From the NCBI RefSeq assembly GCF_014131695.1, contig NZ_CP036346.1:2542001-2606000 (forward strand): a DNA stretch of 64,000 bases. The letters are read 5' to 3'. Positions within the stretch are counted from its first letter, which is position 1, and every line of letters starts with the position of its first letter. Position numbers and translations under genes: made by a program. This DNA comes from Thomasclavelia ramosa DSM 1402 (GTDB taxonomy: Bacteria > Bacillota_I > Bacilli_A > Erysipelotrichales > Coprobacillaceae). Shown one piece after another: positions 36,023 to 41,395 of this stretch. The notes beneath the pieces are model-generated. The model had not been told where the DNA came from, made no database searches, and saw only the letters and a program-made list of their open reading frames with translations.

Positions 36023-36938
36023 GATCATTTTCCTCCACTAACTGCTGATATAGTCCTTCTAGAGAAATCGTATCCTCTTTTAATAAATCTAATTCATAAT
36101 CATTTTCATAAATAAACTTAACAATTTCTTTTTTACATTTTTGTTTATCATCTATACTTACTCTTAAAACTCCATTATTGAGCGTATAAAAATACCCTTT
36201 AGTTTCTAAATATGTTTGTAAATGCTCATTATGATTACAGCTTACAAGTATTTTTTCTTGATTAAATTCATTTTGAACTACATCAATAGGTTGATTTAAA
36301 ACTACATGACCTTTATTGATCATAATAACATGATCAATGATCATTTCTAATTCCGTTAAAACATGTGAACTAATTAAAACCGTCATCTTCCGCTGCTTTA
36401 CTAAACGTTTTAAAGTTTGAATAATTTCATAACGACTAGTTGGATCTAAATTAGCGGTTGGTTCATCCAGTAATAAAATCTCCGGCTTATGCATCATTGC
36501 TTGAATCAATCCAACTTTCTTTTTCATCCCTGTTGAAAATTTAGCAACACGTTTCAACTGATGTTCAACTAAATCAAATTCTTCTAATAATTCCTTAGTT
36601 CGTTTTAAAGCTTCATCATAGCTAAGATCAGACAACATCCCCATATAGACTAAATATTCTAAACAGCTCATATCACTATAAAAATTAGGAAATTCTGGAG
36701 AATATCCCATTATTGCCTTTGCTTCATTAGAACCTAACGGATACCCTTTGATCAAACCACTCCCTTTGGTCGGAAAAATCAAGCCCATCAGCAATGACAT
36801 AGTTGTTGACTTTCCTGCTCCATTCGGCCCAATCATACCGTAAATTTTTCCTCCCTCTAAACTAAAAGACAAATCATCAATTGCTTTATAATTACCAAAA
36901 ACTTTATCCATATGTTCAATCACAATTAATTTATCCAT
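36003..36938 (-). CDS. ABC transporter ATP-binding protein of the FG-GAP operon
   Basis: 311 residues from ATG 36938, which lies inside the stop region of the FG-GAP gene (ATGGATAA overlap), with AGGTG 6 bases upstream. Walker A GPNGAGKST (about residues 36-44), signature FSTGMKKKV, Walker B ILLLDEPTANLDP, H-loop SSHVLTELE, and a C-terminal domain of about 80 residues. Drives the adjacent ABC-2 permease. Confidence 0.9.
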   Translation of the reverse strand: MDKLIVIEHMDKVFGNYKAIDDLSFSLEGGKIYGMIGPNGAGKSTTMSLLMGLIFPTKGSGLIKGYPLGSNEAKAIMGYSPEFPNFYSDMSCLEYLVYMGMLSDLSYDEALKRTKELLEEFDLVEHQLKRVAKFSTGMKKKVGLIQAMMHKPEILLLDEPTANLDPTSRYEIIQTLKRLVKQRKMTVLISSHVLTELEMIIDHVIMINKGHVVLNQPIDVVQNEFNQEKILVSCNHNEHLQTYLETKGYFYTLNNGVLRVSIDDKQKCKKEIVKFIYENDYELDLLKEDTISLEGLYQQLVEENDHESTIQ

Positions 36939-39900
36939 GTTTAACACCTGCCTTTTTCATTAATCGATATTTTGGGTAGAAGACTAAACCAAAGCCGCCA
37001 GCAACAATTCCTATTACCAGTAACATAATCAAATAACGACTAATAGTGCTTTTTTCCACTGTAATTACAGTAGCATAATGAGTAACCTTTCCTTGACCAT
37101 CATTATATGAAAAGATTAAATCATGCTCTCCTGCTAATAATTTAACATTAAAGTTTTTAGCTGTTGTCTTTTCAATCAAATTTCCTTGATCATAAACATA
37201 CATCAAACCATTCTTTTCTGTTTTATAACTTATTTTTAAATTCCCATCATTTACATCTTTTTCATTAAAATCAACTAATTCAAAATCTCGTTGATCAGTA
37301 AAACTATATAACTGCCCTACATTATCTTCAAGCTGCAATAGCTGATTATTTAAAGTTCGAGCACTCGTGACTGCCATTTTTAATCCCGCTACTAAACTAT
37401 CATTTCTATAATCATATATTTGTGATAATGTACCATCATTATAGATTAATTTTGATTGTCCGATCACTGTAGTAATTTGACTCGAATCATAGTTTCCTTT
37501 ACCAAGGATCTTACTTTTTAACTCCTCATAATTACTTCCATTTAAAATCTTTAGAATATTCTTTGTACCATAGTCAGAATTATCATAATCCCTAACTAAA
37601 TACGCTAACTCTTGAATCCCGTCATCATTAAGATCATTGATTTTAACTACACTATTTCCATTTTCAATTAAATTAAAACTAACTATATTTTCCAAAGGAA
37701 CCGGATCACCCATAGAATTATCCCAATCATTATGATAATCAGTAATTAAGTATTCAAATAACTTTTCACCAGTTGCTCCACTAAGAACAGTCCTCATTTC
37801 ATCATAAATACCATAAACAAGATCATCAACTCCATCATTGTCATAATCAATTCCTGTCACACTAAAACTATCTTCTTCATTTTCATAGATAACACCATCT
37901 TTTAATAATGAATATCGTACCGATAAGTCTTTCCCTTTAATGACTTGGAAACATTGACAGCCTTTATCATTATAAGCATTGATTACAAAATCTTTGATTC
38001 CATCATGATCAAGATCGCCTAGCACTTTAACATGAATATTGTTTTGCAATTTTTTATCATAACTTTTAGCAATATTAGTTTTTTGATAAGTTATATCATA
38101 ACCATTCTTTAACGAATAATATAATCGCATTTCACTTTCACCAATATTGACTAGATCACTTATTCCATCATTATTCACATCACCTACGTCAATAATCGTA
38201 GTAGCACCTTCAAATGATTTATTATAAACACTTCTAAATGTTAACAATGCCCCATCAAGAATATTCTCATCAACAATAATTTCTGATTTGCCATCATTAT
38301 TCATATCTGTAAAATATCTAATTGTTTCACCAATTAAATAATGTTCATAATACTTATTATTTTCATCATAGCCTTTTTCTAATAATACCTTTTTATCTGC
38401 CAGCGTATTTCCGTCATTTAAATTCATAATTACGATATGACTAGCAATTACCTCACCATTAGCGTTTAGTTCACTGACTAAACTTAAAAGATGATTATGT
38501 TTTTCATCATAATTAATCGCTTCAAAACCATTATTATGATAACCATCTGGAATGTTAAACGTAACTAAATTATCATCACGGCCACCTAAACCCATTTTTT
38601 TAATTTGCGTTATTTTACCATTATTCAAAACAGACACGATTGTACCATCACTAAGATCAACAACTTTATTAACAACTTTAACACTACCTAAGTACTCTAT
38701 TGTTTTCAAATCTTGATCAACAAGCAGTGACACACCCCCGTCAACTTGTAATAAATAACGTTCTCCTTGATTAGCAAAATGAATTTTCACATTTTTACTA
38801 TTAATACCATTAAGATTCAAATTAGTTTGTTTTAATACTGTACCATCATTTAATGAATAAGCGACAAGTCTTAACTTTCCAGTACTAGCATACGTTGGAA
38901 CAACCAAAGCAGGCTGATTATCAAAAATACCTTTAACCGCTCTACTATAATCTAAATTATATTGCTCAACAGGAATATCCAGTTTAACCTCCATCTTTTC
39001 AAGATCAATAAGTATTAAATGAGGTATCTCTTTTTCACTATCTCCTTCATTTAATTCAATTTGTGGACTCCCCAAGTAAGCACTTATCAACATTAAATTA
39101 TTATCTAATAAATCCATTCGATAACTCATAAAACTAATATTATGGATTCCTGTAGGAACTAGTTGACCGCTCCATTTATTATTGTTTTTTAATAAATTTC
39201 CTAATTTCTCATCAATACCCTCTTCTAAATTTACTGTTTTAATAATTTTCCCATTCATTTGATCAATTTGATATAATTTGGCATCTTCTGTAGTTACATA
39301 CAATTTATCTTTAATATACACAATATCCCAAATATTTAAATTGACTTTCCCCAAAGTATCATATCGTGGATCTTTAATTTCTTTAGGTGTTGTTAATGCA
39401 ACTGTATAATTTAATTTTCCATTAGTTTTATTAAGACTTCCCAATTCTCCTAATTGTGTCGTAAAAATAACCTGATTATTAACTAATGCCATTTTCCAAA
39501 TATTATCTTTCGCTTCATAATCAAATACAACCTGATAATCTTTTGTACTAATTCCTACTAAATGATAATTATAAATTAAATAGACAATATTATCATTAAA
39601 TAGAATTTGTCTAATTGTGGCATTCTTATTCACTGCCTCATTATTATCATTAATCGTGTTATAAGAATATTTTGTAGCATATAATACTTTTGAAGTTTTT
39701 GAACTAACGATTTTAAAATCATCATAATCATCTTCACTATCAATATAAACAGCAACATCTTTAAGACCATCATTATCAACATCATCAATTATTTCAAATT
39801 CTTTAACCGGCTTACCAACTTTGATTTTAAAATCATCGTTACCAATAAAAACTAACTCTGATTGATTAGATACCATCAATCCGCTTAGTCCTTCGCCTAA

Positions 39901-40050
39901 ATCAACATTTTTCCCATTACAGCCACCTTCAATTTCATTACCTTCACCATAACTAACTAAGCTATTTATGCCGGTAATTGCCTGTAGTGGCATCAACGAC
40001 ATACCCAAAATCAAAATCGTAGCGATTAAAAAAGTAAGCATTTTCTTCAT
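36931..40050 (-). CDS. Membrane-anchored FG-GAP/VCBS-repeat beta-propeller protein
   Basis: 1039 residues from ATG 40050 (AAGGAG 9 bases upstream; ATG 40059 abuts the ribosome site). Signal peptide 1-24, a PQQ/YVTN-like propeller region in the first half (repeated strands such as LYVTTEDAKLYQID), and at least six calcium-loop motifs DxDxDGxxD: DVDNDGLKD (about 90), DMNNDGKSE (about 581), DVNNDGISD (623), DLDHDGIKD (679), DYDNDGVDD (734), DLNDDGIQE (804). A beta-sandwich follows and one membrane helix near 1005-1027 with a short basic cytoplasmic tail. Topology: large calcium-binding exterior sensor or receptor. It is translationally coupled to an ABC-2 transporter, so it probably works with it; the ligand is unknown. 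Confidence 0.8.
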   Translation of the reverse strand: MKKMLTFLIATILILGMSLMPLQAITGINSLVSYGEGNEIEGGCNGKNVDLGEGLSGLMVSNQSELVFIGNDDFKIKVGKPVKEFEIIDDVDNDGLKDVAVYIDSEDDYDDFKIVSSKTSKVLYATKYSYNTINDNNEAVNKNATIRQILFNDNIVYLIYNYHLVGISTKDYQVVFDYEAKDNIWKMALVNNQVIFTTQLGELGSLNKTNGKLNYTVALTTPKEIKDPRYDTLGKVNLNIWDIVYIKDKLYVTTEDAKLYQIDQMNGKIIKTVNLEEGIDEKLGNLLKNNNKWSGQLVPTGIHNISFMSYRMDLLDNNLMLISAYLGSPQIELNEGDSEKEIPHLILIDLEKMEVKLDIPVEQYNLDYSRAVKGIFDNQPALVVPTYASTGKLRLVAYSLNDGTVLKQTNLNLNGINSKNVKIHFANQGERYLLQVDGGVSLLVDQDLKTIEYLGSVKVVNKVVDLSDGTIVSVLNNGKITQIKKMGLGGRDDNLVTFNIPDGYHNNGFEAINYDEKHNHLLSLVSELNANGEVIASHIVIMNLNDGNTLADKKVLLEKGYDENNKYYEHYLIGETIRYFTDMNNDGKSEIIVDENILDGALLTFRSVYNKSFEGATTIIDVGDVNNDGISDLVNIGESEMRLYYSLKNGYDITYQKTNIAKSYDKKLQNNIHVKVLGDLDHDGIKDFVINAYNDKGCQCFQVIKGKDLSVRYSLLKDGVIYENEEDSFSVTGIDYDNDGVDDLVYGIYDEMRTVLSGATGEKLFEYLITDYHNDWDNSMGDPVPLENIVSFNLIENGNSVVKINDLNDDGIQELAYLVRDYDNSDYGTKNILKILNGSNYEELKSKILGKGNYDSSQITTVIGQSKLIYNDGTLSQIYDYRNDSLVAGLKMAVTSARTLNNQLLQLEDNVGQLYSFTDQRDFELVDFNEKDVNDGNLKISYKTEKNGLMYVYDQGNLIEKTTAKNFNVKLLAGEHDLIFSYNDGQGKVTHYATVITVEKSTISRYLIMLLVIGIVAGGFGLVFYPKYRLMKKAGVKHG

Positions 40051-40086
40051 TCTAAGCATCTCCTTTTAATATCATGTTTCATAACA

Positions 40087-40219: not shown

Positions 40220-40340
40220 CTAGTAAAATTATGATATTGCTAGGAAATGACAAATATAAATGATAGAATGAAAATAGATAATAAGTCGATTTTAACAAGG
40301 TTTTTTGGATTAAAGAGAATATAAAAAGGAGGACAGACCC

Positions 40341-40769
40341 ATGAACCCGTTAACAGCAGAAATCGCCACCGCCCAAAATAGTGATAATAAACTAATTTTA
40401 ATTATCGGTGGTCCTGGGAGTGGTAAATCAAAACTTATTCATGACTATAGCAATGAAACCGGTATTCCAATTCTAAATCTTGATCAGATCTTTAAAGATG
40501 ATTGTAGTGAAATCATCACTGTAATGAATGACTTTATTGATAACTACGATAAAGAAGTTCTTTTGTTGGATAATAAAAGAGTCCTTTATGCTAAGGACTC
40601 AAATATCGATATGTTAACATTTTTAAAAGAATTAGCTAAAAAAATAATTGTTGTAGCAACATGGAATGGTACTATTGCTGATAATAAACTAATTCATATT
40701 CGTTCTAAACTACCAGCTAATCTCGAATATTCTTTAAAAAATGAACAAATTAAATTTATTAAATGTTAA
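40341..40769 (+). CDS. BrxF-like P-loop protein, stand-alone
   Basis: 142 residues, cytoplasmic. Walker A GGPGSGKSK (about 23-31) with hydrophobic strand LILIIGG, Walker-B-like EVLLLDNKRVLY near residue 74, then LTFLKELAKKIIVVATWNG and a short tail NLEYSL. The order GPPGSGKT - LLDN..lF - L..LaR...VvaaWnG - peY is that of BrxF, the small nucleotide-binding protein of type 3 BREX phage-defence loci. No other BREX gene (brxC, pglX, pglZ, helicase) is in the window. Ribosome site AAAGGAGG. The family call is from pattern memory; a generic small AAA-like ATPase is the alternative. Confidence 0.6.
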   Translation: MNPLTAEIATAQNSDNKLILIIGGPGSGKSKLIHDYSNETGIPILNLDQIFKDDCSEIITVMNDFIDNYDKEVLLLDNKRVLYAKDSNIDMLTFLKELAKKIIVVATWNGTIADNKLIHIRSKLPANLEYSLKNEQIKFIKC

Positions 40770-40770
40770 A

Positions 40771-40791
40771 AATAGAAGCATAGCTTCTATT
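40771..40791. terminator. Bidirectional terminator between the BrxF-like gene and ntpD
   Basis: AATAGAAGC/GCTTCTATT with loop ATA, A run on the left and T run on the right; contains the ntpD stop codon. Confidence 0.85.
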
Positions 40792-41395
40792 TTTTCATTT
40801 CTTTAATAACTTTTTGACGTGTAAATTCTTCTCTTTCTTTTTCTTCCAACGCTTCTGAAATAACCTTAATAGTTGATTCGAAGCGCGGAATCGAAATATT
40901 TCTTAAAGCGTTAGCACGTTTTTGGGTTTTACGAATCGTATTAGCTAAACGATAAACACTATTTTCTACCTCTGCTAATAAAACTGTTAATTGTTTTACG
41001 TTGTAAAAACAATTATAAGCATAATCGACTTTTGAATTTGAACGTTCAATATCATAAGTCATCTTTAAGGGTTGTTTATCATAAGCAATCTTAGGAATCT
41101 CAACCCCCATAACACTTCGATAAGCAATTGAAATCCCATAATCCTCAGGTGTACTATTAACAATATCTGTAATTAACCCCATTGAAATATTAGCCTCTTG
41201 AAGTGCATCATATGCTTCTTGATATGAAGAAGTAATTTGATCACGAATAAGTTTTACATCATCTAATAAAGTCATCATTTCTTTGATTAAAACGTTACGT
41301 TTTTGATCCATTAGATTATATCCAAGGTTCGCTAATTGCAATGATTTTTTCATTGCAATTAGATTACCTTTAGTTGGAACTACTTTCAAGGCCAT
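40787..41395 (-). CDS. ntpD: V/A-type ATPase subunit D
   Basis: 202 residues, all alpha. Starts with VVPTKGNLIAMKKSLQLANLGYNLMDQKRNVLI (here read as two parts, VVPTKGNLIAMKKSL and LLDQKR-type motif), the signature of subunit D, with two long coiled-coil ends. It is the central rotor shaft linking the catalytic head to the membrane ring. Last gene of the operon, 2 bases after subunit B. Confidence 0.95.
   Translation of the reverse strand: MALKVVPTKGNLIAMKKSLQLANLGYNLMDQKRNVLIKEMMTLLDDVKLIRDQITSSYQEAYDALQEANISMGLITDIVNSTPEDYGISIAYRSVMGVEIPKIAYDKQPLKMTYDIERSNSKVDYAYNCFYNVKQLTVLLAEVENSVYRLANTIRKTQKRANALRNISIPRFESTIKVISEALEEKEREEFTRQKVIKEMKK

What the first reader, a model, noticed from the sequence alone, without database searches (positions are those of the whole stretch)
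40341..40769. Orphan BrxF-like P-loop protein
The residue order Walker A GGPGSGKS, LLLDN, then a strand ending in VVATWNG and a NLEYSL tail follows BrxF of type 3 BREX phage defence, as known from that family. No other BREX gene is nearby; the gene sits between an ABC operon and the ATPase operon. An orphan could be a relic or a single-gene defence or regulatory protein.
Basis: partly seen in the sequence, partly recalled or inferred. Interest (0 to 1): 0.55.

Follow-up and report, generated by a model that had tools for sequence, protein, structure and literature searches.

The report
Lone BrxF-like ATP-binding protein, not BREX
A small gene that databases label as part of a phage-defence system is instead a stably inherited gene of its own, conserved in gut bacteria without the defence system, and what it does is still unknown.

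Summary
The ORF at 40341-40769(+) is real and its best named family is BREX-3 BrxF (NCBIfam NF033453, 79.4 bits, cut-off 50; PADLOC 8e-20). It is not a piece of a BREX system. The genome has one BrxF-like gene, no PglZ and no BREX-1-type BrxC. Orthologues occur in 28 of 37 genomes of its family (9 of 9 in the genus), alone among ordinary genes, with dN/dS about 0.17. The same profile passes its cut-off in 121 of 250 genomes of the class of a Negativicutes MAG; 38 of the 40 loci inspected there are lone. In a 94-row tree, 20 BrxF proteins beside a BREX-3 BrxC (DUF6079) form one clade (100/100), and the 33 lone Bacilli proteins another (100/100). Walker A is intact in 74 of 74 lone proteins but only 9 of 20 BREX-linked ones. 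The model (pLDDT 90.5) is a lidless AAA+ core; its first-ranked solved match is BrxB (Z 9.4, tied with other AAA+). Best reading: a vertically inherited, ATP-binding BrxF-fold subunit of an unknown non-BREX complex, over-named by a permissive profile. Relic and spreading defence gene are disfavoured. Function and partner remain unproven.

The parts
40341..40769 (+). lone BrxF-like P-loop protein, 142 aa
   Evidence: ORF; NF033453 79.4 bits over cut-off 50; PADLOC BrxF 8e-20
40327..40332 (+). ribosome-binding-site-like AGGAGG, 8 bases before the ATG
   Evidence: read directly from the sequence
40407..40430 (+). Walker A GGPGSGKS (residues 23-30)
   Evidence: translation; strict pattern present in 74 of 74 lone proteins
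40560..40577 (+). Walker B-like LLLDNK (residues 74-79); acidic D followed by N, no catalytic Glu
   Evidence: translation; the residue after the D is N in 28 and K in 5 of 33 lone Bacilli proteins
40659..40670 (+). TWNG (residues 107-110); W-x-G is the signature shared by lone and BREX-3 proteins
   Evidence: W in 0.97/1.00/1.00 and G in 1.00/1.00/0.95 of the three groups
40768..40794 (+). terminator-like stem-loop between this gene and the convergent V-ATPase operon
   Evidence: consensus scan; 2 found in the region against 0.2 expected from shuffles

Best explanation
The gene encodes a stand-alone, vertically inherited member of a BrxF-related family: a minimal AAA+/STAND-type P-loop domain without lid helices. 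SHOWN: no BREX partners were found, it is outside the BREX-3 BrxF clade, it is under purifying selection, and its Walker A is kept. INFERRED: it binds ATP but hydrolyses it poorly by itself, because the Walker B Asp is followed by Asn or Lys and not by Glu. By analogy with BrxB, whose inactivated AAA+ domain sits on the AAA+ face of BrxC and links it to PglZ (PMC13326643, passages), it would dock as a nucleotide-dependent adaptor on an as yet unknown non-BREX partner in ordinary cell physiology. In BREX-3 the same fold works beside BrxC, and its own ATP site is often lost. The non-BREX, vertical part is about 0.9 likely; the ATP-gated adaptor mechanism about 0.4.
For: Profile. No PglZ and no BREX-1 BrxC in the genome; PF08665 does detect a BREX-3 PglZ. 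Distribution: 28 of 60 relatives with over 100 bits, all within the 37 genomes of the family, 9 of 9 in the genus; only 4 of those 37 carry PglZ and BrxC, and 3 of these 4 also carry the lone gene. Context: lone at ordinary loci. Tree: the BREX-3 set (20 rows) and the lone Bacilli set (33 rows) are each one side of a 100/100 branch. Genome G575 has both a BREX-3 copy without Walker A and a lone copy with it. Walker A: 74 of 74 lone against 9 of 20 BREX-linked, Fisher p 2.4e-9 without correction for kinship. dN/dS 0.166, like aroD 0.181. Model pLDDT 90.5; first-ranked solved chain 9zll_E, Z 9.4, identified by sequence as the DUF1788 protein BrxB. A BREX-3 BrxF model has the same order of elements and the same first hit, Z 10.7.
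Against: No partner, phenotype or biochemistry is known. BrxB's lead over RFC and NSF rows in the window model's fold search is under 1 Z, hence tied. An Arg conserved in lone Negativicutes (1.00) and BREX-3 (0.95) lies in a segment that the window and about half of the lone Bacilli lack, so their docking face may differ. The gene was not found in 9 of 37 family genomes, so it is not strictly needed. DUF6079 was not sought genome-wide in the window's genome.
Confidence: 0.5

Rival explanations
1. Single-gene anti-phage defence protein derived from BrxF.
For: Sequence and fold kinship with BREX BrxF/BrxB; weak profile kinship of 5 of 13 relatives to the antiphage NACHT protein EruA.
Against: Vertically inherited, at loci shared by related genera beside ordinary genes; no defence-gene neighbours by PADLOC; no match in 50,697 phage records; only 2 plasmid records matched, both BREX-3; no effector domain in 142 aa.
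Confidence: 0.12
2. Domesticated BrxF: an ancient BREX-3 system lost its other genes, and the BrxF subunit was kept for a cellular job, perhaps twice (Bacilli and Negativicutes).
For: The tree is unrooted, so BREX-first is possible; lone Bacilli and lone Negativicutes are separate groups at different loci.
Against: Lone Negativicutes form a broad, deep group centred on one locus, more easily read as old and vertical; BREX-linked copies are the ones with eroded Walker A.
Confidence: 0.25
3. Degenerate relic of a recently lost BREX-3 system.
For: No BREX partners in the genome as far as tested.
Against: Intact ORF and Walker A in all 28 family rows; dN/dS 0.166; shared by 9 of 9 genus genomes.
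Confidence: 0.02
4. Small nucleotide or nucleoside kinase with a chance resemblance to BrxF.
For: Weak hits to kinase models, e.g. dephospho-CoA kinase 0.0012.
Against: BrxF is better by many orders of magnitude; all 13 aligned proteins hit BrxF; the fold ranks with AAA+ proteins; no lid in the model.
Confidence: 0.05

Closest known systems
BrxF of type 3 BREX (NCBIfam NF033453; PADLOC PDLC02497)
   Same: profile match over nearly the whole length, W-x-G and aromatic-83 signature, same order of predicted elements
   Different: no DUF6079 BrxC, methyltransferase or PglZ; outside the BREX-3 clade; Walker A always kept; the window lacks the segment with the conserved Arg
BrxB of type 1 BREX (DUF1788; PDB 9zll chain E)
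   Same: first-ranked solved structure for both the lone protein and a BREX-3 BrxF
   Different: 10% identity over the structural alignment; BrxB lacks Walker motifs and supplies an arginine to BrxC's ATP (passages of PMC12839542 and PMC13326643); no Arg is invariant in the 27 aligned lone proteins of the family
Lone BrxF-like proteins of Negativicutes, mostly near sigH and uppP
   Same: lone, same profile, Walker A kept in 41 of 41
   Different: different locus; keeps the Arg-bearing segment; separated from lone Bacilli by a 100/100 branch of length 1.57
ORC/Cdc6, RFC and NSF-type AAA+ ATPase cores
   Same: P-loop core with Walker A and a Walker B Asp; Z 8.3-9.0
   Different: no catalytic Glu after the Walker B Asp and no C-terminal lid helices in the model

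Membership tests
BREX-3 BrxF | NF033453 score over the curated cut-off | tested here: met
   79.4 bits against 50; but lone Negativicutes genes pass too, so the cut-off does not discriminate
BREX-3 BrxF | encoded beside brxC (DUF6079), methyltransferase and pglZ | tested here: not met
   no DUF6079, BREX-3 methyltransferase or PglZ in the 20-kb stretch around it; no PglZ in the genome. All 7 Gammaproteobacteria hits had DUF6079 near them
BREX-3 BrxF | falls within the clade of BREX-linked BrxF proteins | tested here: not met
   20 BREX-linked rows on one side of a 100/100 branch, the window outside it
BREX-3 BrxF | same predicted fold, with added strands before the last core strand | tested here: met
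   same order of elements in both models, compared by eye from the secondary structure
BREX-3 BrxF | works in host methylation and phage restriction with BrxC and PglZ | not testable with these tools
   needs experiment; PglZ is absent here
BrxB (DUF1788) | nearest solved structure | tested here: inconclusive
   rank 1, Z 9.4, rmsd 3.4, 133 aligned, but RFC and NSF rows at Z 9.0 are tied
active AAA+/STAND ATPase | Walker A | tested here: met
   GGPGSGKS; 74 of 74 lone proteins
active AAA+/STAND ATPase | Walker B Asp followed by catalytic Glu | tested here: not met
   D then N (28) or K (5) in 33 lone Bacilli proteins
active AAA+/STAND ATPase | C-terminal helical lid | tested here: not met
   the model ends in strands, with no helix after residue 99

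The most novel reading that the evidence does not exclude
BREX-3 borrowed its BrxF from an old family of lone BrxF-like ATP-binding proteins in Bacillota. In the borrowed copies BrxC took over the ATP site, which then often eroded; in the lone family the ATP site and a cellular partner, still undiscovered, were kept.
Probability: 0.25. Interest if true: 0.7.

Novelty: new variant of a known kind. Interest (0 to 1): 0.5.

Why it matters
Annotation and defence-finding profiles name these genes as BREX-3 components in lineages that have no BREX, so single-gene counts of BrxF would be inflated, strongly so in Negativicutes. If the lone family has its own partner, it offers a simpler system in which to learn what the BrxF/BrxB fold does, and a test of whether a phage-defence subunit came from an ordinary cell protein.

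Tried and rejected
Relic: rejected on conservation. Phage or plasmid cargo: no phage-record match, and 2 plasmid matches, both BREX-3. The viral-contig scan gave 8 weak matches (24-46% identity, at most 91 of 142 residues), not followed. Foldseek against viral models gave mostly general AAA+ proteins. A partner by conserved neighbour: none found. In the genus the neighbours are V-ATPase and FG-GAP genes; in other genera of the family a ROK/PTS-IIB protein, a putative rRNA methylase, a VanY carboxypeptidase, a cold-shock-like protein and others; in Negativicutes sigH, pfkA and uppP, or a lysS-greA locus. Literature: seven searches; 18 papers hold the word BrxF, most of them about other things, and none of the passages I saw describes a lone BrxF family. 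Absence from print holds for this open-access library only. Co-occurrence of other genes with the lone gene was not tested. The root of the tree is unknown; the AU test does not reject lone Negativicutes as one clade (p 0.279), and the tool's long-branch warnings stand.

Rows and limits: left out of the tree were L284, L292, L296, L297, cut by contig ends (L284 has DUF6079; the other three show none in the stretch held). L035/L036 and L219/L220 are identical pairs. L228 and L080 are the same locus, and only L228 was in the tree; likewise L079/L285, L090/L286, L077/L287, with only the second of each in the tree. Tree rows were cut to the part matched by a profile that I built from these proteins. 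25 of 33 lone Bacilli and 33 of 41 lone Negativicutes loci had at least 4 kb on both sides. Counts are lower bounds, since not every first-look candidate was scored.

Full report
OBSERVATION. The ORF stands at 40341-40769(+), 142 aa, with an AGGAGG 8 bases before its ATG. NCBIfam NF033453 BREX_3_BrxF gives 79.4 bits, E 2.1e-22, cut-off 50, and the next family is at 7.8e-5. PADLOC BrxF gives 8.3e-20. No Pfam family passes its cut-off, the best PHROG is at 5e-5, and no solved structure is close by sequence (best E 0.022).

NO BREX FOUND IN THIS GENOME. The genome (one contig, 3.25 Mb) has one match to the protein and one to the BrxF profile. PglZ PF08665 and BrxC NF033441 give nothing in it. PF08665 recognises the PglZ of a true BREX-3 locus on an E. 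faecium plasmid at 91 bits, so the PglZ negative bears on BREX-3. NF033441 gave only 25 bits in a genome with a BREX-3 locus, so its negative bears less. Ten neighbouring proteins gave no PADLOC match except ABC-ATPase cross-hits.

CONSERVED IN THE FAMILY. Of 60 relatives including the window's genome, 28 have a match over 100 bits: 9 of 9 of the genus, 28 of 37 of the family, 0 of 23 of the sister family; four further genomes have only weak matches near 20 bits. BREX, by PglZ and BrxC over cut-off, is in 4 of the 37 family genomes (G014, G018, G019, G029); three of these also have the lone gene and G018 does not. In the class, 15 of 395 genomes, and in the phylum 14 of 392, pass the profile's cut-off; all lie in this family or in one other, f21. 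A same-genus contig of 99,965 bases equals in length NZ_NFKR01000008.1, Erysipelatoclostridium sp. An173, so the genus is probably Erysipelatoclostridium/Thomasclavelia; this is an inference.

CONTEXT IN THE FAMILY. In the genus the gene usually stands between a divergent FG-GAP-repeat gene and a convergent V-type ATPase operon. In other genera it is mostly followed, on the other strand, by a putative rRNA methylase and a VanY D,D-carboxypeptidase, and preceded by a ROK/PTS-IIB protein or a cold-shock-like protein. Nothing there suggests a defence island. Where the upstream gene is co-directional it is 57 to 223 bases away, so the gene probably has its own promoter; a terminator-like stem-loop follows it at 40768-40794. 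Median dN/dS over 21 genus pairs is 0.166 (aroD 0.181, ntpD 0.035, FG-GAP gene 0.423).

THE SAME IN NEGATIVICUTES. The genome-contig scan brought lone relatives from Mollicutes and Acholeplasmatales MAGs and from Negativicutes MAGs beside sigH. In the class of the Negativicutes MAG G547, 121 of 250 genomes pass the profile's cut-off. I fetched 40 loci from 39 of these genomes: 38 are lone and 2 (L188, L207) have a BREX-3 DUF6079 gene directly downstream. With three loci that makes 41 lone Negativicutes-type proteins; sigH and uppP are both within the fetched stretch in 27, uppP alone in 10, sigH alone in 1, neither in 3. Genome G575 has both kinds: a BREX-3 copy without Walker A (L207) and a lone copy with it (L208). 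As controls, Gammaproteobacteria gave 7 of 293 genomes over cut-off, all seven with DUF6079 nearby (one, L284, cut by the contig end; one genome, G554, was there by choice), and Clostridia 10 of 391. Of 11 Clostridia loci fetched (the 10 and one just under the cut-off), 8 have DUF6079 and 3 run off their contigs.

TREE. 94 proteins: 33 lone Bacilli, 41 lone Negativicutes, 20 with DUF6079. The BREX-linked set is one side of a 100/100 branch of length 0.93; the lone Bacilli set is one side of a 100/100 branch of length 1.57; lone Negativicutes need 2 changes, and a single clade is not rejected (p-AU 0.279). Several BREX-linked rows are long branches, and the tool warned of long-branch joins. The root is unknown.

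WALKER MOTIFS. The strict pattern GxxxxGK[ST] is in 33 of 33 and 41 of 41 lone proteins but in 9 of 20 BREX-linked ones (Fisher p 2.4e-9, not corrected for kinship). The nine are the six Gammaproteobacteria, two alphaproteobacterial plasmids and one Clostridia locus. The acidic Walker B residue is Asp in all 33 lone Bacilli, followed by N (28) or K (5), never Glu. W-x-G and an aromatic at position 83 run through all three groups; an Arg conserved in lone Negativicutes (1.00) and BREX-3 (0.95) lies in a segment that the window and 0.48 of the lone Bacilli lack.

FOLD. The window protein's model has mean pLDDT 90.5, pTM 0.87: a P-loop core, then extra strands, no lid helices. In the second look at Foldseek's list the first row is 9zll chain E, Z 9.4, rmsd 3.4, 133 residues, 10% identity. 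A BREX-1 BrxB-like ORF directly upstream of BrxC in relative G019 matches that chain, a DUF1788 protein, at 2.4e-30, so the chain is BrxB. RFC and NSF rows follow at Z 9.0, so the first place is tied. A BREX-3 BrxF (L082) models with the same order of elements (pLDDT 89.5) and has the same first row at Z 10.7, 1.3 above the next.

HOW IT PROBABLY WORKS. In the passages I read of PMC13326643 (search hits within the paper, not the whole text), BrxB's inactivated AAA+ domain binds BrxC's AAA+ domain over an ATP, supplies an arginine, blocks further BrxC stacking and bridges to PglZ. Passages of PMC12839542 and PMC10164562 treat BrxF as the type 3 counterpart of BrxB. From the fold I infer that the lone protein also works as a docking subunit; from its always intact Walker A and missing catalytic Glu I infer that it holds ATP itself and is a poor ATPase alone. 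Its partner is not PglZ, which this genome lacks, and no BrxC was found. This mechanism is inference; the non-BREX, vertically kept status is what the data show.

NOVELTY. Of the papers in the library, 18 contain BrxF, and those on BREX speak of it as a BREX-3 part in the passages seen. PMC12839542 does not contain the words orphan, solo or Negativicutes. I found no description of lone BrxF-like families, within an open-access library only. The practical point is that NF033453's cut-off of 50 bits takes in these lone families.

Noticed in passing
L207 and L208 (genome G575): One Negativicutes genome holds both a BREX-3 BrxF without Walker A and a lone BrxF-like protein with it, a natural side-by-side comparison.
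   Followed up: partly
L289-L291, L293-L295, L298, L154, L157, L188, L207: These 11 of 20 BREX-3 BrxF proteins, mostly from Clostridia and other Bacillota, lack a strict Walker A, while those of Gammaproteobacteria MAGs and two alphaproteobacterial plasmids keep it.
   Followed up: partly
window 36931-40059 (-) and L036: A fast-evolving 1042-aa FG-GAP-repeat protein beside an ABC exporter pair; in genome G007 three shorter ORFs stand in its place.
   Followed up: no
G029 contigs C63, C128, C42, C95: Besides one full-length BrxC, this genome has several partial BrxC matches on other contigs, perhaps a second broken or mixed BREX locus.
   Followed up: no
L205, L209, L210 and similar loci (cluster n11): A 390-580 aa protein, without Pfam match in the one member scanned, stands directly upstream of the lone gene in 12 Negativicutes loci, 24-106 bases away.
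   Followed up: partly
L157 (NZ_AP026896.1): A 4.9-Mb Aeromonas caviae record is filed as a plasmid with only 18 annotated features; it may be a chromosome. It carries a BREX-3 brxF-DUF6079 pair without annotation.
   Followed up: no
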